The notes under the pieces: generated by a model
Seen by the model: the letters and a program-made list of their open reading frames with translations, nothing else
What the model was told of the DNA's origin: nothing
The model's database searches: none
Shown: positions 1-58,254 of the stretch, in pieces
How the letters are laid out: each line of letters opens with the position of its first letter
Numbering within the stretch: position 1 is the first letter of the stretch
Translations under genes and position numbers: made by a program
Assembly (NCBI GenBank): GCA_950295325.1
Contig: OX485803.1
Coordinates: forward strand, 58,853,554 to 58,917,553
Length of the DNA: 64,000 bases
Reading direction: 5' to 3'
DNA from: Polytrichum commune
Lineage: Eukaryota > Streptophyta > Polytrichopsida > Polytrichales > Polytrichaceae

Positions 1-555
1 GTGAGACAAGTATGCCTTGGCCCTAAGTATGTTGTTACTTTATCTTAATCATACACTTACAAGTGGTAGATGGCGAGGGCTTATAAATAAGATTGAACAT
101 CAAGGGTGTTTGTAGTATAAATAATTTTGATGAAACCCTTGATGAAGGCAACTAAAGTATAAGCTTTCTGACCAAATGTTACTCTTTTGCATTGCCCCTT
201 TGCATAGCAAGAATATCGAAACCCTAAGTAAGCCCCTCCATGGCTCTTTTAAGATAAACAATGTACATATTTCTAAATAGTTCCCATGCATGTTCATGGA
301 ACACTTGCAACCAACATGTTTCGATGAGGGTTGTAATTAATTAGAAATTGAAGAAATTTACATTGGATTGAACAACATATTTCTCATACATCTATACATA
401 CATATTCTTACATTCTTTTTTGGGTAATTTTACTCATACAAGCAACTTAAAATCCTTAGTATATGTATTTACTTCATTTCAATATACATATAGCTATATA
501 GCTATGATAACTGAAAAAGTGTGTGATGTAAAAACGTTTCCCTGAGGCCACAACT
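1..555. other. AT-rich stretch without a recognised gene
   Basis: No coding region or repeat family is recognised. The last 70 bases hold short TATA-like runs (around 484-505) and a CAA triplet at 551-553 just before the tRNA gene; both are usual upstream of plant tRNA genes. Confidence 0.5.
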
Positions 556-628
556 GCCGACCTAGCTCAGTTGGTAGAGCGCGTGGCTTTTAACCACGTG
601 GTCGTGGGTTCGAATCCCACGGTCGGCG
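556..628 (+). tRNA. tRNA-Lys (anticodon UUU)
   Basis: A complete 73-nt cloverleaf is readable. The acceptor stem is 556-562 with 621-627, all seven pairs formed, and G628 is the discriminator base. The D arm is 565-580, the anticodon stem 582-586 with 594-598, and the loop 587-593 places TTT at 589-591. The T arm is 604-620 with a TTCGAAT loop and a good B box. There is no intron and the 3' CCA is not encoded, as in nuclear eukaryotic tRNA genes. The nearest T-run that could end Pol III transcription is weak and lies near 688. It looks functional: there are no stem mismatches. Confidence 0.96.
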
Positions 629-1784
629 GACCAAATGACTTGACTTTCCTGAACTTGAAATCGTACTGATTGAATATGATCTACCTAATTTTTGTTTCAA
701 TATGTGCCCTCTCTTTTCACAAAAATTTAAGAATGAATCAGATTAAATTAGAATCTTATTTTAAGTTCAAATTTATAATGACAAAGGTCCTTTCAAACGG
801 TGAATCACAAAATTACCAACTCATTGTTAATAACGGATTTTTATATCTTTGACTTCCGAGTTAATTACATACTTGATTGATGGTTTCACTTCAGGAAAGA
901 ATCCCAATCAATTTCTTTTTTACTATTTTGAAGTGACCATATATATGTGTGTGTGGTGTGTGTGTGGTGTGTGTGTGTGTGAAATCATATTAGCCTTTCT
1001 TTTTTAAACATAGGTATAAAGAAATAAGAAAATATTTGTAGCCTCAATTATATATGTGATGACTATTCAAAGTCAAAACCACTAGCTTCCTTAAACCGAA
1101 ATATAGGTCCCGTCTTCATTGCCTAGAACCAACACAACATACTTGGGTTCTAGAACCCAAGCTAGATCAGAGACCAACAAGTAACAGTGCGCAAAGCCAC
1201 ATGGCCACCTTCATGATCCCACGTAGTTCGCTTGCAACACCATCACCTTGCATCCTGGGTATCAACCCCTTTTGTGCTTTGTGTGCCTGCCTCCGTGACT
1301 TTGTGAACAGTATGGCTATAACCCCTCCCCCATGCAGTGTATAGAATGGCTAGAATAGGCATTGACAAGCCACCCTAAACCCACCTTGAACCAACCCAAG
1401 ATAGAGTGGAGCCCGTTATCTACCCTACATGGAGGTAGTGGAGGTCGCTATGAGGTGGCGCCACTAATGGCACCTGAAAGGGTCACTCCGTGGGTCCATA
1501 CACTCCTACACCATGGGGAACGCTTCAAGGTAGTAGAGTGTCGGTGATTGGGAGGCGTTTACAGGTGTTGGTTTTGGATGAGGTATTGGTCTTAGTACCC
1601 TCTACCTTATGGGTTTTGTGGACCACATGTATAACATTACTTAGCATTCAACTCTCATTCCGTGGGCCCTCATAATATAAGTTCCAGTTATGCTGGGAAA
1701 ATCATAATCAAAGCTATATCATGAACTCCCAACATCTTAGTGGTATATTCTAAGGGCTCTCATGTCGTTGAGCTTCAAGAACAC
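629..1784. other. Intergenic stretch with a (TG)n microsatellite
   Basis: No gene is recognised. A TG/GTGTGG microsatellite lies at about 946-981. The rest, up to the LINE insertion site, has only short open frames without recognisable motifs. Confidence 0.5.
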
Positions 1785-1799
1785 AAAAGCAACCTTTTT
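1785..1799. repeat. LINE target-site duplication, 5' copy
   Basis: The 15-mer AAAAGCAACCTTTTT is repeated without mismatch at 5243-5257, right after the poly(A) tail. The two copies bracket the LINE insertion. The bottom-strand TTTT at the AAAA side fits the TTTT/R nick preference of L1-type endonucleases. Confidence 0.9.
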
Positions 1800-1876
1800 C
1801 TAGGGTCAAATGGCAACAAGTAGGGGATAGATGCTCCAAAGAGTTCTTTAAGTCCGTACGTCAAAAAAACACACAT

Positions 1877-4800
1877 ATGGTAATTACGGAACTTAAAGAC
1901 AAGAATGGAAGGAGCTTTACCAAGAAAGAGGACCTAAACCGAATTTGTCACGACTTCTACCAAGACCTATATAGACATAAGGACATTGATGAGGAGGCGC
2001 TTATAGAAGTTATGGAGGGGGTACCGGCTACATTTACCCCCGCCATGAACGAGGTGCTAGTTAAGGAGGTCACGGAAAGGGAGCTTCGGGGAGCTGTCAA
2101 TTCAATGGCAAAAGGCAAGGCGCCGGGACATGACGGCATCCCGGTGGAGTTTTACCAAAAAATGTGGCCAACCATAGGTACGGATTTTCATAGAATGATT
2201 ATGCTAAGCATGGAAGAGGAGAAATTACACGAGGGAGTTACGAGAGGGTTGATTTGCCTAATACCTAAGGAGGGGGATGCCAAAGACCTCAACTATTGGA
2301 GGCCAATCACCCTCCTCACGGTAATCTACAAAATCTTTGCCAAAACTCTACAAATTAGACTTCAACCCATGTTGAGGGACGTAATTAGCCCGGAGCAAAC
2401 GGCTTTCTTACCTCTTAGGTTTATTCTAGATAATATAGTGCTTACCCAAGAGACCCTTCATTGGGCGAGAGCGTCTAGGCAACCTACAATCTTTCTTAAA
2501 CTAGACTTCTCTAAAGCGTATGACAAGGTGTCTTGGCGCTTCCTTTTTTGTGCAATGAAGGCTATGAATATTGATGAGGTGTTTATAAAGTGGGTAAAAC
2601 TACTTTTTACCCATGCATCCGCGGCGGTTAACCTTAATGGTAACCCCGGCGGGAACTTCAAAATTGAAAGGGGAGTAAGGCAAGGGTGCCCACTAGCCCC
2701 CTACCTATTCCTAATAGTGGGTGAGATTCTTACCCACGTAATTAAAAAGGCGGTGGCGGAGGGTAGGCTCAAAGGAGTTTACTTACCCGGGGGGAAGAAA
2801 CAACAAAGTATCTCCCAATATGCGGACGATTCTTCATTCATGGTAAGGGGTACCAAGGAGGACGTCGACGAACTTGTGAGGTTGCTTGAAACATTTAGCA
2901 AGGCATCCGGGATGGAGATCAATTGGGAGAAATCGAGCGCATATTGGTTCGACAAATACACCCACAAGCCGGATTGGCTCTTAGGCTACAATTGGAAGTG
3001 GGCGGAGGAAGGCGACCTCTCCAAGCTTCTAGGTACCCCCTTTGGCCTAAATCTCAACACAAGAGATATTGACCAATTCCTTTATAATAAAATAAAAAAG
3101 AAGCTAGAGTATTGGAGTGGCATGAAGTTAACCCTAGCCGGTAGAATTGTAATATGTAACCAAGTGTTACTTTCAACACTATGGTTTTTCATTACGGTTT
3201 GGGGAGGTTCTAACAAGATCTTAAGGAAAATACGGGGAGCAATTAGAAATTACATGTGGTCCGGTAAGGAGCAACTAACCCGGACTAGAGTTAGTTGGCA
3301 AGAGTGTTGTAGAAAGAAGAAGTATGGAGGGTTAGGTCTTGTAGACCCGGAGGAGGCTAAAACTAGCCTTTTGTGCAAGTGGATAGTCAAAGCAATGGAA
3401 CCCGGAGAGTCCAATCTCCAAATTATGCTAAGGTATAGGCTTGCAAGATTTAACCCACAAAGAGGACGGAGTTGGGGAGTGGACCTTGAATGGTTCACTA
3501 GCAAACAACATCAAGGGTTCTCCGGGTCTAAAGTCTGGGGTCACATAAGTAAGGCATGGAAATGCATGGCAAAAAGTATTTACCAACTCCCGCCACGCAC
3601 AAGGATGGAACTTCTTCACTCCAACCTATGGTGGTCGGATGGGGTAGAGCTACTCAAAAAGGGCTTCACGTACACCAAGGGCTTGGAGTTCTACCGCAAA
3701 GGCATTCGGAGAGTGGACGATGTGTGGGACAACGATAGAAAAGACTTCCTTACGTGGGCCGAAGCACAAGAGAAATTCCAACTTAAACCAACCGAGGAGC
3801 GAGATTGGGTGGGAATTACGAGTAAAATATCGGAGGAGTGGAGAGGGAAGCTTGAAGAGGATTCGGACGACACCCACCCCGGAATGTGGCTTGGACTATA
3901 TGAGATAGGCAAGGAGGACCCCACGTTAGTAGTAAGATGCGAGTCGGAATTTACTCCCCCTTGCTTCCAACTCTATACTTTGACATTACCCACTCCGCCC
4001 AAATGTTATACCGTAGGCACTTACTCTAGATGTCTTAGAGAATGGGAACGTCCGGAAGGAGAGATTGAAGGTTACTTTCATGAGGTCAAAATCATTTACA
4101 CCAATAGAGGCGCTAAGAAAGAAGAAGAAGAAGAGAGGGAAGAGGTCATTTTCTTTTATGGAAAAGTGGCCACTCTTTCTTGGGACCCGGATAGGTGGAG
4201 GTGGGGAGATGGAGGCCGGTTTCTTGATTACACCACAAAGAAAGGAAGAGACATTCTTACTAGTAGAAGTCAAGGCTCCTCAAGGGCGGCGGATAAGTGG
4301 CAAGGTTATCTACCGGGCAATTATAGATTCCCATGGTCTCAAGTGTGGGATCCGAACCGTTCCGGCAAGGAAGCGGCCTTCATTTGGTCGATTTGGCATA
4401 AGGCGGTAGCAGTTAATGAGTGGAGGGCAAGGATTGCCCCGGCATCCATTTCAAAACAATGTATCTTTTGCCTTCCCAATACTAGTGAATCGGTTAAACA
4501 CAAGTTTTGGGATTGCATTCAAGCTAGGAGAGCATGGAGGTGGGCCACCTACATTATGCAAGAGCTTTGTGGAGTGAGATCGGGCAACTATGATTGTTTT
4601 AATTGGAAACAAGCTCTCTTTGGGGAAAGACTTCCCAAGAAGTACGGGCCCAAAATTAAAATTTGGCACCTCCTTAGGGGCATCACGCTATGGGCCATTT
4701 GGATCGAGCGGAATGATAGGGTCTTCAACCACGAGCAATGGCATGAAACACGACTCAAACACCATGTTTGGGACGAACTTATCCTCTATGCCAAGACGGC

Positions 4801-4957
4801 TTGGGAACGGGTGCTCAAGAATATCAAGATTAGTGCTTTCTCGGCTTTGGCGTTGCTTCAAGGTTTTGACAAAACTTGGGGGGCTAGAAATGTTCTTTGT
4901 AGAAGAAACAATCTCCACATTGAGTGGAATTGGAAGAAAAGTAGGTTTTTTAGGTAG
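1877..4957 (+). CDS. LINE ORF2 C-terminal part: reverse transcriptase with zf-RVT domain
   Basis: This 1026-residue open frame encodes a non-LTR retrotransposon reverse transcriptase. The fingers region has LIPKEGDAKDLNYWRPIT near residue 133; motif A is LKLDFSKAYD with the catalytic Asp at about 210; motif B is RQGCPLAPYLF; motif C is YADD at 315-318; then come GMEINWEKS and LGTPFG blocks and the thumb/connection region (YWSGMKLTLAGRIVICNQ). A zf-RVT zinc-binding block, CIFC then H and C, sits at about 862-886. No RNase H domain is seen. ATG 1877 is simply the first Met: the same frame is open back to 1802 and encodes a typical LINE block there (VKWQQVGDRCSKEFFKS), so the true ORF2 began upstream and was lost on insertion. 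The frame has no internal stop. It would act in cis on its own RNA to copy it into the genome. Confidence 0.93.
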   Translation: MVITELKDKNGRSFTKKEDLNRICHDFYQDLYRHKDIDEEALIEVMEGVPATFTPAMNEVLVKEVTERELRGAVNSMAKGKAPGHDGIPVEFYQKMWPTIGTDFHRMIMLSMEEEKLHEGVTRGLICLIPKEGDAKDLNYWRPITLLTVIYKIFAKTLQIRLQPMLRDVISPEQTAFLPLRFILDNIVLTQETLHWARASRQPTIFLKLDFSKAYDKVSWRFLFCAMKAMNIDEVFIKWVKLLFTHASAAVNLNGNPGGNFKIERGVRQGCPLAPYLFLIVGEILTHVIKKAVAEGRLKGVYLPGGKKQQSISQYADDSSFMVRGTKEDVDELVRLLETFSKASGMEINWEKSSAYWFDKYTHKPDWLLGYNWKWAEEGDLSKLLGTPFGLNLNTRDIDQFLYNKIKKKLEYWSGMKLTLAGRIVICNQVLLSTLWFFITVWGGSNKILRKIRGAIRNYMWSGKEQLTRTRVSWQECCRKKKYGGLGLVDPEEAKTSLLCKWIVKAMEPGESNLQIMLRYRLARFNPQRGRSWGVDLEWFTSKQHQGFSGSKVWGHISKAWKCMAKSIYQLPPRTRMELLHSNLWWSDGVELLKKGFTYTKGLEFYRKGIRRVDDVWDNDRKDFLTWAEAQEKFQLKPTEERDWVGITSKISEEWRGKLEEDSDDTHPGMWLGLYEIGKEDPTLVVRCESEFTPPCFQLYTLTLPTPPKCYTVGTYSRCLREWERPEGEIEGYFHEVKIIYTNRGAKKEEEEEREEVIFFYGKVATLSWDPDRWRWGDGGRFLDYTTKKGRDILTSRSQGSSRAADKWQGYLPGNYRFPWSQVWDPNRSGKEAAFIWSIWHKAVAVNEWRARIAPASISKQCIFCLPNTSESVKHKFWDCIQARRAWRWATYIMQELCGVRSGNYDCFNWKQALFGERLPKKYGPKIKIWHLLRGITLWAIWIERNDRVFNHEQWHETRLKHHVWDELILYAKTAWERVLKNIKISAFSALALLQGFDKTWGARNVLCRRNNLHIEWNWKKSRFFR

Positions 4958-25250: not shown

Positions 25251-26250
25251 GTTCATTGAAGCGGAGCTTCGAAGCAGGGGGATGGGCCCTCCCTCCTGCT
25301 GCGGCGCTACCTCGGGACATGCTACATGCTGGGCGCGGCGGCCACGCAGGAAATTGTAAACTAAAGGTATTCTAGTCGTGGAGCCGGAGCAGCGGTAGCG
25401 AGCTTGTCGAGACGAAGTGATGGTCTAGACATAGGTGACGAGGGAGCCTGGGAACTCAACAGGCCAGCCTCCTCTTGAAGGTGCAGGTGAAAGTGAAGGA
25501 AGAGAGCCTGGGAACTCAATAGGCCAGCCTCCTCTTGAAGGTGAAGGTGAAGGTGAAGGTGAAGAGGGGGACGGAGGGGGGAGGGCCGGAGAGCAATAGA
25601 CGACGACGGCATTGGTGTCCGGACGAGTTCCGTTGCTGGGTGCTTGTCGATCTCTTGTCAGACACGCACACATACACACATCACAAGAACCTCGACGCCT
25701 TCCTTCCTGTCTTCCGTCGTCCACGGACAGCATCCGACTCTACCACTCTCAGCTAGGCCTTCCAACAGCACTTCACTCGGGGCTCTCGGCCTAAGGAAGT
25801 ACAGGTGCCCGGCCCAATACGCCGCCTTTGGTGCTACTTGTAATCGATCTATCTGTTGTGAGCTGCCGGCAATGCTCTGAGCAGCAGGTGGGAAGAGGCG
25901 AGGCAAGCCGGCCAAGGCGCAGCTGAGTCTCGGTGCATGCGGGCGTGGCTAGAGTGAGTAGGAGAACGGCGGATAAGTTAGGTGTTTGGCTATTGGAGCT
26001 ACAGGATCTGTGTGCACATAGCGAGACGTGTGGAGGAGGCCCATGGCTTAGGGTGGCAATGGTTGGACAGGGTTGACAACAATGTGGTGCAAGTGTAAGG
26101 TGTCGAGGAGAGGCAGACGCAAGTCTGAGGGGAGTAGCATACAGGGTAGGCAGTAGGCGGACAGGGAACTATTTGTGTGGTAGATCTGGCAAGCAGCGCA
26201 GTGTGGTGTTATAGAAGGAGCAGGGCATTGCTCCTCTGAGGTCTCCGTGG
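25251..26250. promoter_or_regulatory. Upstream region of the LRX-lectin gene, with a 60-bp tandem duplication
   Basis: GC-richer than the flanking repeat blocks. A 60-bp unit is duplicated at 25441-25500 and 25501-25560 (GAGCCTGGGAACTCAA, GGCCAGCCTCCTCTTGAAGG), ending in a GGTGAA run. No convincing TATA box is found. Placement as promoter and 5' UTR is from position only. Confidence 0.35.
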
Positions 26251-29200
26251 ATGGCGCAGTTGGATGCAGGCCTCTCGGCCTGCTTTCAGCTACAACGGAT
26301 GCGCTCCTTCGCCAAGTTCGTATTGCTGCTCGTCCTCTGTTCTTATCTGTCATTCGCCTCCAGTACTGACTCAGGTAATACCCTTTCCATGGAGGTTTAT
26401 GCCAACTTCTGGTTGCAAGCAGGGTGTAGGCACGGGAGCCCTCTTAGTGATGAAAGTAGAAAGCTTGTAAGGCAATGCGGAACTGGCATGTTTCTTGATA
26501 GTTCATCGCTCGGAAGTCGTGCGAGGTGATCTCTGCTTATCTCTTCAGAGGAGCACTGGCTGACGATGTGTATCACTATTGAGGCCCACTTTCAAGTTTG
26601 CTATATTTTCGGAAAGTCATGCGCTCTTTGTGGACCCGCGCAGAACGTCAGTGTGGCTTAGGTTTCCATCAATGTGGGTCTAGATTTGGTGCATCAGGGT
26701 GTCCATGGCAGGCACTTAGTTGCTTGGACCATTCCAGTCCTACCGGATGTGAACGACACACGAATGGGGATCGTCTAATGCAGATTACGTTATGCACCTA
26801 ATAAGGAGATGCATGCTCATCTCTGTTTCTGGAATCCCAAGTGCGGCTGTCAGAGTTATTCACGCTTTGAACCTAAGCGATAAGCTTAGGTTGTGGAGTG
26901 ATTTTATCTCTGTCCATTCTATCAGTTAATCTTTGTCAACTGGAGATTCTGAATGGAAATCTTGCATTAGAATGACTTTGTGGGGACCTCTGCATAAGCT
27001 TCTTTGGGAAAATGAGTACGCCGCTGCGAACAGTAACGATAGCCGAAATAACTGTTGATAAGTTGTTTTTGGCCTGGTAATGTTTTATGTCCATATGTAA
27101 GTCAAATGGAAAACGGAATTGGAGATCTACTCAGTTTTTGGTTTGGACATGAGGCTACCGATGTCAAAGAGGTTGGATATTCCCCCTCAATTGTGGTGCT
27201 CGTTTACCGCACCATACTCATGGGAGGCATGGTTACCACATTTTCCTTGTTTACCTTGTGTGACTTGTATAGATTCGAGGGTGTTCTTAATGTCGTGAAC
27301 TTTCTGGGGATTACATCCTCATGAGAGGCATACAAATTTGATATCCACTTTAGACATGTGACAGTTTCATCTACTACAGAATTAAGATGTGTTCAGTTTG
27401 GACGGTTGAAAGATGTCTTCTTCTTGTTACCTTTGACGTATTTAACCCAAATTCCGTAGTGTCTGATATAGAATTTGGATGCATGGTTTTGTGATATTTT
27501 GAAATGAGCATTGTACTGGTACTGGTGCATAATCCTGGCCACCGTGACGCTTGATTGTGATGGTTTACCTGAACTTTTTCTGATGCGTTTTTTGCCTGCA
27601 GCTGAAGCACCCGAGGCTGCCGAAGATGGAGCCCATCATTCCGCCTTCTCGCTTGGCGGGGGCCATCATCCCCCTGGAGTTGGCCACCATCCCATTGGAG
27701 TAGGACACCATCCCATCCAGTTCAGTCAGTACAGAGCTTTCATTGCCCTCCAAGCGTGGAAGAAAGCTATCACCGATGATCCTTTGGGCATCACCAAGAC
27801 ATGGGTGGGCCCCAAGGTTTGTGATTATACGGGAGTTTTTTGCTCCGCCCCTATCGATGATCCAGATTCGGATCTCAGAGTGGTTGCGGGTATCGATTTG
27901 AATCACAGCAATCTTACAGGAGTTCTTGTGCCTGAGTTGGGGTTGCTTGCGGAGATCGGTCTGTTCCACTTGAACTCCAACTTTTTCAGCGGAGAAATCC
28001 CCGAGACATTCAGGTACATGGATACATTATTTGAGCTGGATCTGAGCAACAACAGATTCTCGGGGCTGTTTCCCGAGGTTTGCCTGGACATCAAGAACCT
28101 GATATACCTGGACATTCGATTCAACAACTTTCACGGCGAACTTCCTCCCGAACTGTTTGAGAGGCCACTCGACGCCATTTTCGTGAACAACAACAAGTTT
28201 CACAAGAGTCTACCCACGAGTCTTGGAAAGTCCCCTTGCTCTGTATTGGTGTATGCCAACAATGAGATCGATGGCGACATCCCCCATTCCATCGGCAACA
28301 TGTCGAGGACTTTGAACCAATTCCTGGGTCTAAACAACAAGCACAAAGGGAGCTTGCCATCAGCAATTGGCATGTTGGATCAACTGAACATATTCGATTT
28401 GAAGATAAACAAACTCACCGGATCTATCCCCACGTCATTCAAGAATCTGCAAAGCCTGGAGGTGCTAAACTTGGGAAACAACAGGATTTCAGGTAAGGTG
28501 CAAGCAGGATTCTGTAGGCTTCCACACTTGCAGGAGGTGCACCTGAACAACAATTTCATCAATGCAGTGGCTCCTACTTGTAATAATCTTGCAGCGCGAG
28601 GAATTGTCTTCGATGTTAGTGGAAATTGTTTGTCAGGCAATTCAAACCAGAAGTCAGGAGCAACATGTGCTGCCTTCTATCACACAACAACTTCATCTCC
28701 CCCACCTCCTTCTCCTTCACCTCCACCTCCCAGTCCTTCACCTCCTCCCCCTAGTCCATCTCCCCCTCCTCCAAGCCCATCTCCCCCACCTCCTAGTCCA
28801 TCTCCCCCACCTCCTAGCCCATCTCCTCCTCCTCCTAGTCCATCTCCTCCACCTCCAAGCCCATCTCCCCCGCCTCCTAGCCCTTCACCTCCACCTCCAA
28901 GCCCCTCACCTCCTCCTCCCAGTCCTTCTCCACCTCCTCCTAGTCCTTCACCTCCTCCTCCAAGCCCATCTCCACCACCTCCCCCTCCCCATCATCATCA
29001 TCATCACCATCACCCTCCTTCACCTGAGGCACAGCCCGAGTGTCCCGAAGGTTACAAGGCAGGGAAGGAATCAGGAACATGTTTCATGTTCGTTAAGGAG
29101 CCCCAGACATGGGCTGAAGCTGAATACTATTGCAGGCAACATGAGGATGGGCATTTGGCAGCAGCTGCAACTTGGGACGAGCTTGAAGATCTTGGACACA

Positions 29201-29673
29201 TCTGTGAGAAGGACAAACACTACGTGTATGGTGATGAAACCAACCCGAAAGGTCTGGGTTGCTACTTGGGTGGCCGCAAGCCTTACATGGTTAGTCCAGC
29301 GAATGCGTCTTGGACATGGCCAGCTTCTCCTTGCATTCCTTTCAACCAGTCTTTCTGGAATTATGGTGAGCCAAACAACAGGGGAGGGCATGAGGGCTGC
29401 ATCACGGTGAAGTTCGAGTCTGAAGAGCAGGCGCATGACGACACAAAGCTGGCGTACATGCTGAACGATTTGAGATGTGATGTGCAACTACCTTTCATCT
29501 GCTCATTGACGAGATGCACGGACGTTGGATGTGGAATGTCGGATACTTGCAAGTCACAGGGTGATTGGAAGGCTAGCTGTCACTCGAATGTGACAGAAGC
29601 AGTGGGATACACATGTGACTGCAGTTCTGGTTACTTCTCGGATGACTCTGGCACTTGTTGCAGAGGCAATTGA
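26251..29673 (+). CDS. Secreted LRR-extensin (LRX-like) protein fused to a C-type lectin domain and an EGF-like tail
   Basis: Two exons, 26251-26374 and 27602-29673, join phase 1 across a GT-AG intron (TCAG/GTAATA ... CTGCAG/CT) and give about 731 residues. Residues 17-38 form a signal peptide (MRSFAKFVLLLVLCSYLS); ATG 26299 is an alternative start. A His/Gly-rich segment (42-84) precedes the LRX cap (YRAFIALQAWKKAI; WVGPKVCDYTGVFC; GIDLNHSNLTG) and about ten LRRs to residue 400. Residues 407-504 are thirteen perfect seven-residue SPPPPSP units plus a final SPPPPPP; 505-512 are eight His. A C-type lectin domain spans about 522-675 (W..AE..C, W.W, EPN at 631-633, LND..C, PFIC). A Cys-rich EGF-like tail (YTCDCSSGYF) ends the protein. 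LRX proteins bind RALF peptides and anchor in the wall through hydroxyproline glycans. EPN in lectins usually means Ca-dependent mannose-type binding. The fusion is unusual. AATAAA at 30264 probably ends the transcript. Confidence 0.92.
26375..27601 (+). other. Intron 1 of the LRX-lectin gene
   Basis: Begins GTAATA after TCAG and ends with a pyrimidine-rich TTTTTTGCCTGCAG. It separates the signal-peptide exon from the body. A frame runs on upstream of the acceptor to a TTG at 27511, but that is intron sequence. Confidence 0.85.
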
Positions 29674-30300
29674 GGTTGGACATGACCAATTAAGGTCTGA
29701 TCAGGAGTGAGAGGATCATGCCATAGCCTTGTCTCTTGCGGCAGCGAAGCTGGAAAGGATGCGAGGAAAGTAAGGAGACGGAAGGGGTTGGTGAGTGATA
29801 TCTCAGGGAACAGGTTTGTAATAGACCGAAGAAGGCAGTGCGAGGTTTGTGCATCTGCCAGGGACTGGATAGATAGAGGAAGTTTTAGCAATGTAGCCGG
29901 AAGTAAGGAAGGAGTTGGTGGAACCTTGCTCTATCTTTCTTTTCTTCTGGCAGTTGAACAAGAGGCTTTCAAAGATTGACTCTTGGAGCTGAAATGCACT
30001 CAGCAGCAGTGCTCCGAAAATTGCCAGCTGCTTCCCTTTGCATATGGGGATAGAGCTCAGACATTGAGGAGGTTTGGTTAGCAAGAGCATTTATATGTTT
30101 ATCCATTTCACTGCTATGCTACATATATGTACTGGAGTTCAGATGTCGGGTGGGTGGCAAGCCTCAGTGCATTTCGCTATTCTGGTTTTCGTCAATCCAG
30201 TGACATCTCAGTTCCAATTCTTTTACTGAGACTTTATATTCTTTTAGGCTCTTGAGGTTTTTTAATAAAGTGTACACTTGTGCGTTCTCGCGTTTCCGTG
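29674..30300 (+). terminator. 3' UTR and poly(A) signal of the LRX-lectin gene
   Basis: About 600 bp follow the stop. AATAAA at 30264-30269 is followed by TGTACACTTGTG, a fitting near-upstream element and cleavage context. The exact 3' end cannot be set from sequence. Confidence 0.5.
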
Positions 30301-31097
30301 CTGTAGATCCAGCTTGTCAATTCGTTTTGTGCATATTGCAGCTGGTGATTAATACCAAAATGTAATTTCTTATACAAGACATAAATTACAGTCCCAATGG
30401 GGCTGTGACTCTCAGTTTAACCAGAGAGTCCAGTGTGATCGACAGCTTGTGAGAAGTTTGGCGTTATCGTTTTGTAAGATGAGTAGGTTTGGTGTGATAA
30501 GTAATCTTAATTGTGTTGTGCATTTTATTATCATAGTATGGTGGCTATCTATGTCGGTGATTGTCAATGTATGATTCTTCTGGAACTTTTGAATACTTCG
30601 CAGAGTGTACCTTCTTTGAACTGGACACACCAGTCATCGTAAAGAATCTTGCTTGTATGTATTAGGGTCTTGCATTCTGAGATGACGATTTATAAAACGG
30701 GCTAGGAAAAGCTATGACATGCTATCTGCTTGGTCCATCGCATTAATTTCTATGAGATTTTGAAGTTTGTCTTTCTCCTATGGGAAGGACCTTCTGTGGG
30801 CTTCGGTTGAAGCTCTTTTGTACACGGGAGGCAACCTTTACGCTACAGATTGGAGAAAAGCTAACTTGTAAATGAATCATGGAAATTGTTTCGCAACATG
30901 TACCATCGAGGTGCAGTCCGCAATGCTGTAGTGAACATTGTTCTCACCCTCCCCATTGCTAGGTGTTGGGAACATGTACGCGTTCATGTTGAAGTCATTA
31001 GCTAACTGTTTAAGATGGAAACATTTGTAGTGGGATTCCAAGGACTTTTGAAAGGCGGATTGAGAGGAGCACGGGTATCGGTATTTCGAAAACATCA
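30301..31097. other. Intergenic stretch between convergent genes
   Basis: Lies between the + strand LRX gene and the - strand panB gene. No gene is recognised. Confidence 0.4.
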
Positions 31098-31864: not shown

Positions 31865-34800
31865 TCAATCAGCAGGGGTCTTGATTAGTGGTTCGCCGGC
31901 GTCTATATCCTTGGATGCAGCAACTGATGCAGCCTCAGCTGCGGTGTGTAAACCTCTCTTCTCCAGAGCTTCAAGAAATGCAGCAGTTTGTTCCTGATCT
32001 ATTCGGTAGGGTGTGTGCAATGCTGATGGAAAAGTTTGAGACATAACTTCATCCCGATAGGCCGAGAGAGCCTCCTCAATCACACTTCCTACGCTTGCAT
32101 ATTGCTTGCAGAACTTGGGGGTCACCTGTAACCAATACATTGTGCACCATTCCAACATCCCTTTTAGTATATGCATATACATTGTGATATTAAATGCCCC
32201 TGACTCTGTATTTCAAAGAGCAAGAGAGACTTTGGGGTGGGTGCTCTGGGCAACAAAATATATGGTGATAGCCTTGAACGGAGAGGATTCCACTACGTTA
32301 TCTATCTCCACCCGAGCAGATGGGGGTGGCGAGGATACACAAAACATCATTATTCAAAAAAATGGCCTGCCTTGTGTTTTTGAACTACCCTCTTATTTCT
32401 CAGTATTGACACAATAATTCAAGCAGATGACTCAGTTGTCAGTGGCACACTGTTATCGATGTATTCCTAATTAGCTGATAACCATCAGGAACAGCTGTAC
32501 TTACTGCTTTCAAGAAAAATGGAAACCCAACAACATACCTTCCTAAAGAAAACAGGCTCCATGCTGACCGAATATTTCTTACAAGTTAATGTGATTGCCT
32601 AACCTGCTGCAAAACTAGGTAACATATGAACTTGGGTGCAGAAAGTGTACCTTCACATAATGAGGATGTTCCATCATGCCAAGAAGATCATGGTACACCA
32701 AAACCTACAATTACAGGATCATAATGAGCACCAGAGGATGGTTCAAGGCTAGCAATTGTCTTGCTCAGGCAGAGTAAAAAGTGTTAATTTGCATACAAAG
32801 ACTACCGCAACTGCATCTCTATATGGCACTTAACATGAAGGGAGCTGTAATCATTACTCAGATAACATGTACCTGACCACTACATAATGGGCCAGCACCA
32901 ATTCCAATTGTGGGTATGCTCAGTGTAGATGTAACAGCTGCTGCAATTGGTGATGGAACACATTCCAGTACTATAGCAAAGCATCCCGCAGCTTGCAAAG
33001 CCAATGCATGGTCCAGAACCTGTCCGGCACCAGATCCATAGCTAGAATTGATACTTGTATATGTCAAGGACCAGGTATGCAATGATACATGCCTTTAGAT
33101 AACAACAAACATGCACATTTGAGGAGTGAATTAGAAGGAAACCAAAGCATCAAGCCAATAGCTTGAATGGTTGGGACTCACTCTCCACCTTGTAAGTAGT
33201 GAGGGTTCCATCAATCCACCAAGCCATGCTAGTGCTACCCATTATAGTCCACCCAAACATCGTGGGGGTTGCCGGGTCAACCAGTTATCTTAAAGTTGTG
33301 GGTTTTGTGGGGCTCAGCAAGCCTAATAGGGCAGGAACAATAGACGATCGAGTTGCCCCGGTTATGGCCGTTACAAAGAGTCCACCTCCTCATCAAAGCA
33401 TTCATGCAGTTGAAGAGACTCCAAAATTAGGCAAACATAGGCGTTATCCTTTGTCATTTTTACGGAAACACACTAAAGCATATTATTTTTGTCAAATTGC
33501 ACGCATACCTTAAGTGCACTGTCTGCATTCCGGCCTTGTGGACGAAATCCACCCAACACACTAATGGCCTGAGGTGTAAGGCCTACATGACCCATGACAG
33601 CAATACCCGCCTCAGCTATAGCTTTAGCAGCTTGTACCCGAGAACCTCCTCCTCCCTCCATTTTCACAGCATCCATTCCGCCCTCTTTCAGCAAACGTGT
33701 TGCACTTGCTACTGCCTGCATAACAATTATTTTCACTTGTCATATCATAATCAGAATGTACACCAGAAGCTGGAATCAAAAACGCCCTGACAGTGGGCAT
33801 ATCATCAATAAAGGTACCCCTAAGATCTCTATTCACAGGCTCTTCACTATGTTCATCAATGTTGAGAGACGCTGAGACTCTGGTCTGGGATCTGCAATTC
33901 TGCCATCTTGCATGTCTCATCAATCTTGACCAGATGACAGTTTCAGTCTCCACATCACGTCCATATGAAATGTGGAGATCATGCATTCCAATCTTCAACT
34001 ATTTTTGGCAATGCTCAGAAGAGTAGGGCAGCACAAGTCTTTTCCTCGATAATGCACCTTATCATGAGACAGCCTGCTTACTGCTTGCTAGAGGAATGTC
34101 ACTGACGATCACACCTAGGGGATGATGCCACCATAACTTCCCCCTACAAACGAAGCAGGTGTGCATCAACCATAAATTCACTCAACCCAGCTTCTAGCAC
34201 AGGTTAATAAAATTCTGTAGAACCTGTACAGGAATAGATGAGAATGTAAAGAGGGTAGAGAACAAGCGTAGCATTTACAATGTTCACAAAGATGACGCAC
34301 CAGTTTGAATATCGCAAGCATCAGCATCTCGATAAGACGTTTCATTTGGATATTGATTTGCACCCCATGATGAGTTAGCATGCACATTCACTATCTAACA
34401 AACCCTAGACCCCTGACAAAGAATAGGCAGAGTCATCGATGCAACTTATGTATATACCTGCTGTGCACTTTGCTCATAGCTGCCAAAGGGGAGATCCCCA
34501 ATGAGAAGCGGTCGATGTGCACCCCTTGCTACAGCCTTGCAATGCAGCAGCATGTCTTCCATGGTGACCGGTAATGTTGTATCATGGCCATGAACCACCA
34601 TACCTACTGAATCCCCCACCAGACATATATCTATCCCTGCTCGGTCCACATGGACAGCTGCCAAAATTCCCAACTTCTCATTAGTGATGGTGAGTGATCT
34701 TTAGGGTTTTCACCTTGCTGCACTAAAGATTGCATGAAACCCTCAAGGTCCCATTGTCCATAGAGGAGACTGATCCCACATGCTACATCAAGGGCTCTTG

Positions 34801-55415: not shown

Positions 55416-57208
55416 GTAGGAAATGTGGTCTTAGGACGCGCTTCCCATATTACACATGCAAAAATTAGCACACGACTCAATATAAACAATCAAGTGAAAT
55501 CTAAGATAGTTATAGATTGGATTCAACTCTTGTCAATTGGGTCGCATTCTCATGACCGCCCGTATCAAAAGGGAACTGCATTCTAGGACCATGTTTCTCA
55601 CTAATACATTATGGGATTGAACGCACAACCTACGATTGGGGTGCTTGTCCCCAAGCTAGTTTGATAAACAATATGCGATGAAGCATTATTGAAAGCATTA
55701 TTAAGTTGTGCCCAATTGAAGGTTTGTTTACAAACAACCATCATTTCGTTAATTGATGGTTGTAGTTTACATTTAGTTAATGAGGAATAAGGAGGGGAAA
55801 GTTATATTTATGATAATAACAACCACAACTACTCTTATTACTTGCCCAACTACAATACAAGATGTACTCGGGAGTACTTGCGATGATTGTAATTTACTTT
55901 TTGGGCTTTCTTTTGTTTGTAGTTTCTATGTGGCACTAGGAGAATACTTTGATGCCAAAGCGTGGGAGAGGATTTGTAGGAGATCATTTCTCTCGTATCA
56001 CCTTCCCACTAGAATCCATGAAAGTGGTTGTATGCATTCCTTAAATTGCACCAATGGAAGAGACAATTGTTGTGGACAAATCTACTCTTCGACTATCATG
56101 ATTGGTTGTGTGATTGGAAAAAGGTAAGGTATGCAGGTGTATTTGGTTAGTTTTCTTGATCAGACACCTAAATTTGAATGGTGTGTGATCAAGTGTGGAT
56201 CTAAAAACAAGCGCCATAAAGACATGTGCTTAAAAGAGATTGGACTACATCTATAAGATTTTATTAACTGCCCCACACTCAATAATAAAGACAATTGGGA
56301 CAACCTATATATTCAATTAAGAAATCGACAAACATGCACTTCTCATAACCATAACTAATTCAGGGGAAGTTTGATTCTCAATCCAATTTTGGCTAATCCT
56401 TCATCATAGATTTGCAAATGCAACACAAGTTTCTTTGTATATATTTCATACGTGTAACTTGGAGAAGATGAGAAAATGAACCAAACAAACAACAGAAGAA
56501 GAAGAAGAAGAAGAAGAAGAACTCCAGTCTCCGAACAAACAACATACCTTAGTTGTGGTTGAAAGTGGGTTCAACCACAACTCAACCATCGTGGTGGTTG
56601 TGTGTAAGTAAATGCACCTTACTATTGACTTTTGATCATCAAGTGGTGTTTATCTTCAAAAAAAAAAGTTGTTGAGAATATTTTCCTCTATAGTTCAAAG
56701 CTTTATTTATGTAATAGATATTACTTTTGAAAGATTTGTACTACTTTTGTTACAAATATGGTGTGTGTAGCACCAAGATGATGTCGTATGCAACCTAAAG
56801 AGATAAGAACAAAACATCAACTTTGATAAACAAAATGATAAGTTTTTATTTTCATTAACAAATGTTGTTCAAACTCTACACATAAGATCATGCACCCCCA
56901 AGCATTTAAAAATAAGCCATAAGTCTTTATAAGATGAACATATTACAAAATACCTAAGCATACATAATATCATCTACTTTCAATGAAGTTTGTCCTACAT
57001 TTTTGCTTTTAAAATGCTTACACGGAGCTCCAACCCCACATATGTGTTCTTCATTTTGGTGTCCACACTTTTCCTTCTTGAAAACCCAAGAGATAATAAT
57101 ATAAGGGTTAAGAGCGAGGTGTGGTTCAAATCTAGAGGTGTGGACTTTCCTTCCTAAATGTTTTAAGAAATGGGTGAGGCCGGAGAGACATGACATTATC
57201 GAAACTAA
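55416..57208. other. Intergenic stretch
   Basis: A 115-codon frame at 55780-56127 (Thr-rich, then Cys-rich) has no recognised domain and no supporting context. A (GAA)n tract is at about 56494-56521. Confidence 0.35.
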
Positions 57209-57252
57209 GGACCCCCCCCCCAGGGCATGAGCCCGAGTGGGGGGGGGGGGGC
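57209..57252. repeat. C-run/G-run hairpin
   Basis: About ten C, then AGGGCATGAGCCCGAGT, then about thirteen G. It can form a long GC hairpin and lies just before the CDPK relic. Confidence 0.6.
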
Positions 57253-57330
57253 TTATTTCCAATGATGCCTTGTCTCGAGCGTCTCACTGCACGTAAAGAC
57301 CTAGCTGTAATTTCTAGATGCTTCCGCTTT

Positions 57331-58254
57331 ATGTTGCAACAAGAGACTAAAAATGTTCGCGATTTGTACACATTGGGAATGAAACTTGGTTGTGGTCAAT
57401 TTGGCACCGCCTACTTGTGCATTGAGAAGGCCACCGGGAGGGAGTATGCGTGCAAGTCCATTGCAAAGAGGAAGCTCAACTCGAGAGAAGATGTGGAAGC
57501 CGTGTGTTGTGAGCTCCGCATCATGCACCATTTGTCGGGGCATCCCAACATCGTGATGATCAAAGGGGTGTACGAGGGTGTCTCCTCAATGCACTTAGGG
57601 CCGGTTTACACCATGGACCATGAAGTCAGACCATGGACGATGGTCTTTTTCCATGGTCCAACTTCCATGGTCCGATTTCTCAAAAATCCAATTTACGAAG
57701 CCTTCGGGCCCCTCACTAGGTGTAAGCCAAATGTGGACCAAGAGGAATGACCATGCCCCAAAAAATGAATGTGCTAATTTTAAACATATATGACAAAAAG
57801 GTAGTTTTGAGAAGAAAAAAAAAAGTTTGATCAATCCCTTGTCTTCATCTTCTCTTCCTCAAAAAAATAAAAATAAAATCATTAAAATATTAATATAAAA
57901 ATATTTCTTTGCCATGGGCCCTTGCCTTTTTCTACTAGAGCACCTCTTTTGCCCCTCCCATTGCAAAACTCGTTGGACCATGTCAATGAATAATGTAGGC
58001 CTCAAAGTATGTCTTTTGGGGATCTCAAACTCCATGGTCACTCATACATTTTTTCCTTGGTGTAAACCGAAGTGGTCCCGGGACGAGTTTAACAACCAAT
58101 CACATATTCTATAGGGCCTTGAGACGACTTCATGGTCCATGATGTAAACAACCCCTTAGTGATGGAGCTTTGTGTAGGAGGCGAGCATTTTGACAAGATT
58201 ATTCAAGGAGGCCATTACTCCAAAGCCAAAGTGGCCAAACACACCCTTGCTTAA
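57331..58254 (+). pseudogene. Calcium-dependent protein kinase (CDPK) N-lobe fragment, split by a MITE
   Basis: Part 1 (57331-57597) encodes [20 protein letters not shown], the Gly-rich loop, [11 protein letters not shown] with the ATP-binding Lys, the alpha-C Glu region and [20 protein letters not shown]. Part 2 (58156-58254) resumes LVMELCVGGEHFDKIIQGGH, then YSKAKVAKHTLA and a stop. This covers kinase subdomains I to the start of VI; the catalytic loop, activation segment and EF-hands are absent. A family D MITE sits between the parts with a TTA duplication: joining codons ATG CAC TTA to GTG ATG GAG restores the CDPK reading MHLVMELC exactly. It is continuous genomic sequence like one exon or a captured fragment. 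Intact CDPKs phosphorylate targets in response to calcium; this one cannot. Confidence 0.88.
57598..58155 (+). mobile_element. MITE family D inserted in the CDPK fragment (TTA target)
   Basis: Ends GGGCCGGTTTACACCATGG and CCATGATGTAAACAACCCC, flanked by TTA (57595-57597, 58156-58158). 558 bp, no coding capacity. Harbinger/Tourist-like by target and ends. Confidence 0.92.

What the first reader, a model, noticed from the sequence alone, without database searches (positions are those of the whole stretch)
26251..29673. LRR-extensin fused to a C-type lectin and EGF-like domain
The N-terminal half is a standard LRX cap plus leucine-rich repeats, followed by a regular Ser-Pro extensin stalk. Instead of ending there, the protein continues into a C-type lectin domain with the EPN sugar-binding motif and a Cys-rich EGF-like tail. 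Plants have very few C-type lectins, and I do not recall this fusion being described. It would give one wall protein a peptide-hormone-binding head (RALF-type in known LRXs), a wall-anchoring stalk and a calcium-dependent sugar-binding head.
Basis: partly seen in the sequence, partly recalled or inferred. Interest (0 to 1): 0.88.

Follow-up and report, generated by a model that had tools for sequence, protein, structure and literature searches.

The report
Plant LRX protein with lectin head
A gene, probably of a moss, makes a protein that joins an LRX (hormone-binding type) head, a proline-rich rod and a C-type lectin (sugar-binding type) head in one chain; the join is real and present in two copies, but what it binds is untested.

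Summary
A leader exon (26299 or 26251 to 26374) is spliced to one exon (27602-29673) whose uninterrupted frame carries an LRX-type LRR head, 14 Ser-Pro(3+) motifs, a C-type lectin domain (Lectin_C above Pfam's cut-off, EPN and Ca2+ ligands intact) and a Cys-rich tail. The tail is EGF-like by eye and only below Pfam's cut-offs. A second intact copy (711 aa) lies about 88 kb away in inverted orientation, with the same splice sites, cysteines and Ca2+ ligands; dN/dS is 0.13 overall, 0.19 in the lectin domain. In a six-frame search of this genome these are the only two LRX-grade heads found, and both carry the lectin. Five RALF matches and 56 Malectin_like matches are present. Plastid PsaA points to a moss. 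My paper searches, on an open-licence library, showed no description of this fusion. Best reading: a new LRX variant, a secreted RALF-binding protein whose far end grips glycans in a Ca2+-dependent way. Architecture is shown; secretion, RALF binding, sugar binding and wall attachment are inferred. Other moss proteomes could not be searched, so its spread is unknown.

The parts
26299..26374 (+). exon 1: hydrophobic leader, read by eye as a signal peptide; an in-frame upstream ATG at 26251 gives 16 more residues
   Evidence: donor CAG|GTAAT kept in the paralogue
26375..27601 (+). intron, 1227 bp, GT..AG, phase 1
   Evidence: paralogue intron 1203 bp, 1050 of 1177 aligned bases identical
27602..29673 (+). 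exon 2: rest of the protein, one open frame to TGA
27727..28668 (+). LRX-type LRR head (residues 68-381 of the 715-aa form)
28669..29034 (+). extensin-like Ser-Pro stalk (14 motifs of Ser followed by three or more Pro, 21-nt repeat unit) with a His8 run near its end
29035..29502 (+). C-type lectin domain (residues 504-659)
   Evidence: Pfam Lectin_C above cut-off; E-selectin and codakine alignments
29368..29376 (+). EPN motif; further expected Ca2+ ligands Glu at 29392-29394 and Asn-Asp at 29464-29469
   Evidence: sequence, aligned to E-selectin, identical in paralogue; that these are ligands is recalled
29503..29670 (+). C-terminal tail with 8 Cys, EGF-like by eye only
25632..30656 (+). extent of the segment shared with the inverted paralogue (its coding part C1:58788665-58792003), as far as the stretches compared show

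Best explanation
This is an LRX protein, probably of a moss, in which the extensin-like rod does not end the protein but carries a C-type lectin domain and a small Cys-rich tail. Proposed working: the LRX head binds RALF peptides as LRX2/LRX8-type heads do; the roughly 120-residue stalk, presumably hydroxylated and arabinosylated, is a stiff spacer in the wall; the distal EPN-type lectin head binds a mannose/glucose/fucose-like glycan of the wall or of a microbe when Ca2+ is present. The lectin would thus supply or tune attachment of a RALF-binding head whose stalk lacks Tyr-X-Tyr cross-link motifs. Shown: gene structure from sequence, architecture, duplicate, purifying selection, RALF matches in the genome. 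Inferred: secretion, Pro modification, RALF binding, sugar binding, wall attachment.
For: One open frame spans all domains; Lectin_C above cut-off; LRX2 and LRX8-type chains are the top three PDB matches, each as one stretch of about 300-313 bits over the head, against 101.8 bits for the best single stretch of the next entry (GSO1, total 296.2 bits from several stretches); of 312 head positions 146 are identical to LRX2 and 141 to the LRX8-type, against 175 between those two; EPN, Glu and Asn-Asp align with E-selectin and are kept in both copies; intact paralogue, dN/dS 0.128 overall, 0.192 in the lectin domain; 2 of 2 LRX-grade heads found in the genome bear the lectin; 5 RALF matches above cut-off, each with the four Cys of the mature part; 56 Malectin_like matches, counted exon by exon.
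Against: Three Cys shared by LRX2 and LRX8 in the head are absent, and no Cys lies between residue 381 and the lectin domain, whereas LRXs have a Cys-rich tail there (recalled), so head geometry may differ. The single best PDB match of the lectin part is echicetin, a snake-venom C-type-like protein, over 44 residues only; E-selectin's aligned stretch scores an E-value of 0.0026 on its own and does not pass 0.01 on its own in the two-sequence profile search. Many C-type folds do not bind sugar (PMC5485988 passage). The Trp of WND is Leu here. The lectin part evolves faster than the head.
Confidence: 0.5

Rival explanations
1. The lectin fold is not a sugar binder but a protein-binding or dimerisation module at the end of an otherwise ordinary LRX.
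For: Many C-type folds lack sugar binding (PMC5485988 passage); several best PDB matches are snake-venom C-type-like proteins, which I recall as non-sugar-binding; 23 of 156 lectin-domain residues differ between copies, against 1 of 314 in the head.
Against: EPN, Glu and Asn-Asp are intact in both copies; since 133 of 156 residues are unchanged this is weak evidence.
Confidence: 0.3
2. An immune role: the lectin head is a bait for microbial glycans and the LRX head couples this to RALF signalling.
For: EPN-type domains commonly recognise mannose-type glycans (recalled); RALFs modulate immunity in Physcomitrium (PMC9933782, start of abstract, passages); the lectin domain diverges faster than the head.
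Against: No expression data; dN/dS 0.19, averaged over the domain, gives no sign of positive selection.
Confidence: 0.15
3. Artefact: two neighbouring genes or an assembly join read as one.
For: None found, beyond the lack of transcript data.
Against: Single uninterrupted frame; a copy with 172 of 2133 aligned coding bases different and the same join, coding indels amounting to 12 columns in the stalk; contig C1 of 77.9 Mb.
Confidence: 0.03
4. Ordinary moss LRX: mosses generally have this form and it has gone unremarked in annotation.
For: Both LRX heads found in this genome have it. Physcomitrella is reported to have five LRXs that resemble each other most (PMC4769139 passages); that paper's main text holds the word lectin 0 times.
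Against: That paper draws LRXs as ending in the extensin domain; no other moss sequence could be examined here.
Confidence: 0.45

Closest known systems
Angiosperm LRX proteins (LRX2 6qxp, LRX8-type 6qwn)
   Same: LRR head, 146 and 141 of 312 positions identical; Ser-Pro stalk after it
   Different: C-terminal lectin domain and Cys tail after the stalk; no Tyr in the repeats; three shared head Cys missing and two others present
Animal EPN-type C-type lectins (E-selectin 1esl/1g1t, codakine 2vuv)
   Same: Alignment through the EPN site; the E-selectin alignment runs on into the Cys module that follows its lectin domain
   Different: Low similarity (E 1.6e-5 and 2.2e-5), Leu for Trp in WND, tail below Pfam's EGF-type cut-offs, plant host
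Plant C-type lectin receptor kinases (71 of 83 plant C-type lectin sequences in a Pfam 31 survey, PMC5485988, passages)
   Same: C-type lectin domain in a plant protein
   Different: No kinase domain in the Pfam scan; LRX head and stalk instead
Chlamydomonas mastigoneme protein MST3 (PMC11015965, passages)
   Same: Poly-proline-rich region and putative sugar-binding C-type lectin domains in one extracellular protein
   Different: 8,572-residue mastigoneme stalk protein with Ig-like and PKD-type parts; no LRX head in the scheme quoted

Membership tests
LRX (leucine-rich repeat extensin) | N-terminal signal peptide | tested here: inconclusive
   Hydrophobic leader read by eye in exon 1; no predictor run
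LRX (leucine-rich repeat extensin) | LRX-type LRR head | tested here: met
   LRX2 and LRX8-type chains are the three best PDB matches; 113 of the 175 positions common to both are kept
LRX (leucine-rich repeat extensin) | Repeated Ser-Pro3-5 module | tested here: met
   14 motifs of Ser plus three or more Pro, 13 in the paralogue
LRX (leucine-rich repeat extensin) | Extensin domain forms the C terminus (typical scheme in PMC4769139) | tested here: not met
   212 further residues with a lectin domain follow the stalk; hence filed as a variant, not a typical member
LRX (leucine-rich repeat extensin) | RALF binding | not testable with these tools
   Five RALF matches exist in the genome; contact residues not checked (paper not held)
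LRX (leucine-rich repeat extensin) | Tight wall association | not testable with these tools
   No Tyr in the repeats, so no Tyr-X-Tyr motif
C-type lectin domain (PF00059) | Pfam gathering score | tested here: met
   29.0 and 32.5 bits against 22.6
C-type lectin domain (PF00059) | Ca2+-site residues (EPN, Glu, Asn-Asp) | tested here: met
   Aligned to E-selectin, identical in both copies; which residues are ligands is recalled
C-type lectin domain (PF00059) | Ca2+-dependent sugar binding | not testable with these tools
   No assay
EGF-like domain | Pfam EGF-type match above cut-off | tested here: not met
   Best 11.6 bits (FXa_inhibition, cut-off 33.4) and 8.9 bits (Pvs28 EGF, cut-off 26). In favour, weakly: MASP-3 and MASP-1 match at E 1.1 and 1.5 over residues that I recall as their EGF module, while the best PDB match (E 0.037) is Seizure 6-like protein
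C-type lectin receptor kinase | Kinase domain | tested here: not met
   No kinase among Pfam matches (E up to 1) to the whole 731-aa protein

The most novel reading that the evidence does not exclude
In this moss lineage the entire LRX repertoire has been rebuilt as two-headed wall sensors: a RALF-binding head and a Ca2+-dependent lectin head at the two ends of a stiff rod, so that glycan state and Ca2+ of the wall directly gate RALF capture, replacing Tyr cross-linking as the anchor.
Probability: 0.25. Interest if true: 0.8.

Novelty: new variant of a known kind. Interest (0 to 1): 0.62.

Why it matters
How RALF-binding LRX proteins grip the wall and read its state is an open question (my judgement), and no recognisable carbohydrate-binding site was found in the malectin domain structures of the partner receptors (PMC12034098 passage). 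A natural LRX with a canonical-looking sugar-binding domain would offer a testable link between wall glycans, Ca2+ and RALF signalling. C-type lectins are scarce in plants and mostly receptor kinases (PMC5485988 passages), so a version on a proline-rich rod is unusual.

Tried and rejected
Rejected: assembly or two-gene artefact. Rejected: a start at exon 2's own Met without a leader, because exon 1 and both splice sites are kept in the paralogue. Led nowhere: the genome search with Pfam family PF00059 gave 0 matches and missed even the two real genes, so other C-type lectins in this genome are not excluded; the lectin query scored only 2 candidates. Scans for relatives of the lectin part in viral contigs (56 pattern matches, 0 confirmed) and prokaryote contigs (93 pattern matches, 0 confirmed) used two short peptide patterns each, so they reach close relatives only. 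A search for a moss genome paper (10 of 182 listed) listed none on mosses. Moussu et al. 2020 on the LRX-RALF structure is not held, so RALF-contact residues were not checked. One search failed through a wrong frame and was not repeated. Script one search gave meaningless numbers because the paralogue's acceptor was not found; one search replaces it.

Full report
What is there. The ATG at 26251 (or 26299) opens a short exon that ends at 26374 with CAG|GTAAT; the acceptor is at 27601/27602; exon 2 runs to a TGA at 29671-29673. The spliced protein has 731 (or 715) residues. The frame 27508-29673 is open for 721 codons and holds LRR, stalk, lectin domain and tail together, so the fusion rests on one exon. 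The 715-residue form is preferred because its first 25 residues read as a plain signal peptide; no predictor was run. In the whole protein Pfam finds LRRNT_2, LRR_8, LRR_1 and LRR_4 above cut-off in the head, and Lectin_C at 29.0 bits (32.5 for the isolated part) against a cut-off of 22.6. The tail with 8 Cys resembles an EGF module by eye, but its Pfam matches are below cut-off (FXa_inhibition 11.6 bits against 33.4, Pvs28 EGF 8.9 against 26). In the PDB the tail alone has 8 matches at E up to 10, the best Seizure 6-like protein at E 0.037; MASP-3 and MASP-1 at E 1.1 and 1.5 match over what I recall as their EGF module.

The head is LRX-type. Against the PDB the three best matches are LRX2 (6qxp, E 1.4e-92) and two LRX8-type chains (6qwn, 6tme). 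The next, the receptor kinase GSO1, has a close total E-value (2.4e-87), but that sums several stretches of which the best scores 101.8 bits; the LRX chains match as one stretch of 302 to 313 bits along the head. Over 312 head positions the protein is identical to LRX2 at 146 and to the LRX8-type at 141, while these two share 175; of those 175, 113 are kept here. Three Cys common to LRX2 and LRX8 are missing and two others are present.

The stalk has 14 motifs of Ser plus three or more Pro (13 in the paralogue) built on a 21-nt unit. Its only Tyr lies at the boundary with the head, so the Tyr-X-Tyr cross-link motif described for extensins (PMC4769139) is absent. A run of eight His lies near its end.

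The lectin domain. The best PDB match is echicetin, a C-type-like venom protein, over 44 residues (E 7.6e-6); E-selectin (1.6e-5) and codakine (2.2e-5) match over most of the domain. In a search with a profile of the two copies E-selectin has 6.8e-5 in total but no stretch that passes 0.01 alone. EPN, the following Glu and Asn-Asp line up with E-selectin's; that these are Ca2+ and sugar ligands, and that EPN favours mannose-type sugars, is recalled. The Trp of the usual WND is Leu. The E-selectin alignment runs past the lectin domain into its Cys module. This parallels the order lectin-Cys module, without proof of common descent.

A second copy. A six-frame search of the window's own genome (407.8 Mb, 64 contigs) with lectin plus tail gave 2 matches from 2 candidates: the window gene and one at C1:58788671-58789303 on the minus strand, 88% identical. 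The paralogue has the same two exons, splice sites and architecture, 711 residues, its start 87.8 kb from that of the window gene, in inverted orientation. The shared segment spans about window 25632-30656 of the stretches compared. Coding indels come to 12 alignment columns, in the stalk.

Selection and recombination. By Nei-Gojobori counting, dN/dS is 0.128 over 711 codons; by part 0.079 (N-terminus, one replacement), 0.025 (LRX head), 0.085 (stalk, repeat alignment uncertain), 0.192 (lectin), 0.099 (tail). The 17 Cys of lectin plus tail and the Ca2+-site residues are the same in both; with 133 of 156 lectin residues identical this is weak evidence on its own. Divergence is uneven: 5' flank 0.095, intron 0.116, head dS 0.054, lectin dS 0.42, tail dS 0.39, 3' flank 0.18. 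Head against lectin plus tail at synonymous sites gives Fisher p 7e-11, but head against intron only p 0.012. Mismatches are 12 in 900 bases over 27701-28600 and 21 in the next 150. I read this as gene conversion over the 5' part, the head above all; faster or older divergence of the 3' part is not excluded.

No other LRX found. The LRX head as query gave 195 matches: the two fusion genes at 716.3 and 714.6 bits, then a drop to 106.3 bits and 30% identity, the level of ordinary LRR proteins (126 of 1324 candidates were scored, and the weakest matches were not listed). So 2 of 2 LRX-grade heads found carry the lectin. The PF00059 family search gave 0 matches and missed both true genes, so it says nothing about other C-type lectins. 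The genome has 5 RALF matches above cut-off; each translates with the four Cys of the mature part, the translation having been picked by Cys spacing, and 4 of 5 have RRML before it. Malectin_like gives 56 matches, counted exon by exon and not shown to be FERONIA-type.

The organism. The plastid PsaA (contig C8) matches best PDB entries 8htu and 6l35/7ksq/7kux/7xqp, which I recall as photosystem I of Physcomitrium patens; 9lut, whose source I do not know, is close behind. This points to a moss. Hits lie at up to 39 Mb or more on each of contigs C1 to C7, which would suit seven chromosomes; the species is not established.

Literature. PMC5485988, passages: of 83 plant C-type lectin sequences in Pfam 31, 71 are receptor kinases; Arabidopsis has one member. 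PMC4769139, passages, 12 of 23 places: 61 new LRXs in 16 genomes, five in Physcomitrella, drawn with the extensin domain at the C terminus; the word lectin occurs 0 times. [quoted passage not shown] C-type plus EGF mentioned for animals. [quoted passage not shown] PMC12034098, passages: LRX-RALF-FERONIA links. PMC9933782 and PMC6482432, passages. Other papers were seen as listings only. Nothing seen describes an LRX with a C-type lectin domain; the library lacks most subscription papers, several searches listed only part of their hits, and plant protein databases could not be searched.

Verdict. A real, duplicated and conserved fusion; a variant of LRX with a lectin head. The mechanism (RALF at one end, Ca2+-dependent glycan at the other) is inference from the two domain families.

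Noticed in passing
window 25751-30656 against C1:58787000-58796000 (L003): The two inverted copies are much closer in the LRX head (dS 0.054) than in the lectin part (dS 0.42), with a step near 28600: gene conversion over the 5' part is likely, though the head differs from the intron only at p 0.012.
   Followed up: partly
window 1772-4954 +: 1061-codon open frame with reverse transcriptase (RVT_1, 131.3 bits) and a zf-RVT match just under its cut-off: a LINE-like element with a long intact frame.
   Followed up: no
window 31868-32212 -: Open frame matching ketopantoate hydroxymethyltransferase (Pantoate_transf, 29.7 bits), downstream of the finding.
   Followed up: no
window 57178-57747 +: Open frame with the first part of a protein kinase domain (53.7 bits).
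   Followed up: no
window 555-629 +: tRNA-Lys(TTT) gene.
   Followed up: no
window 28990-29013: Run of eight His near the end of the stalk, five in a row in the paralogue; a His-rich stretch also lies before the LRR head. Possible metal binding, untested.
   Followed up: no
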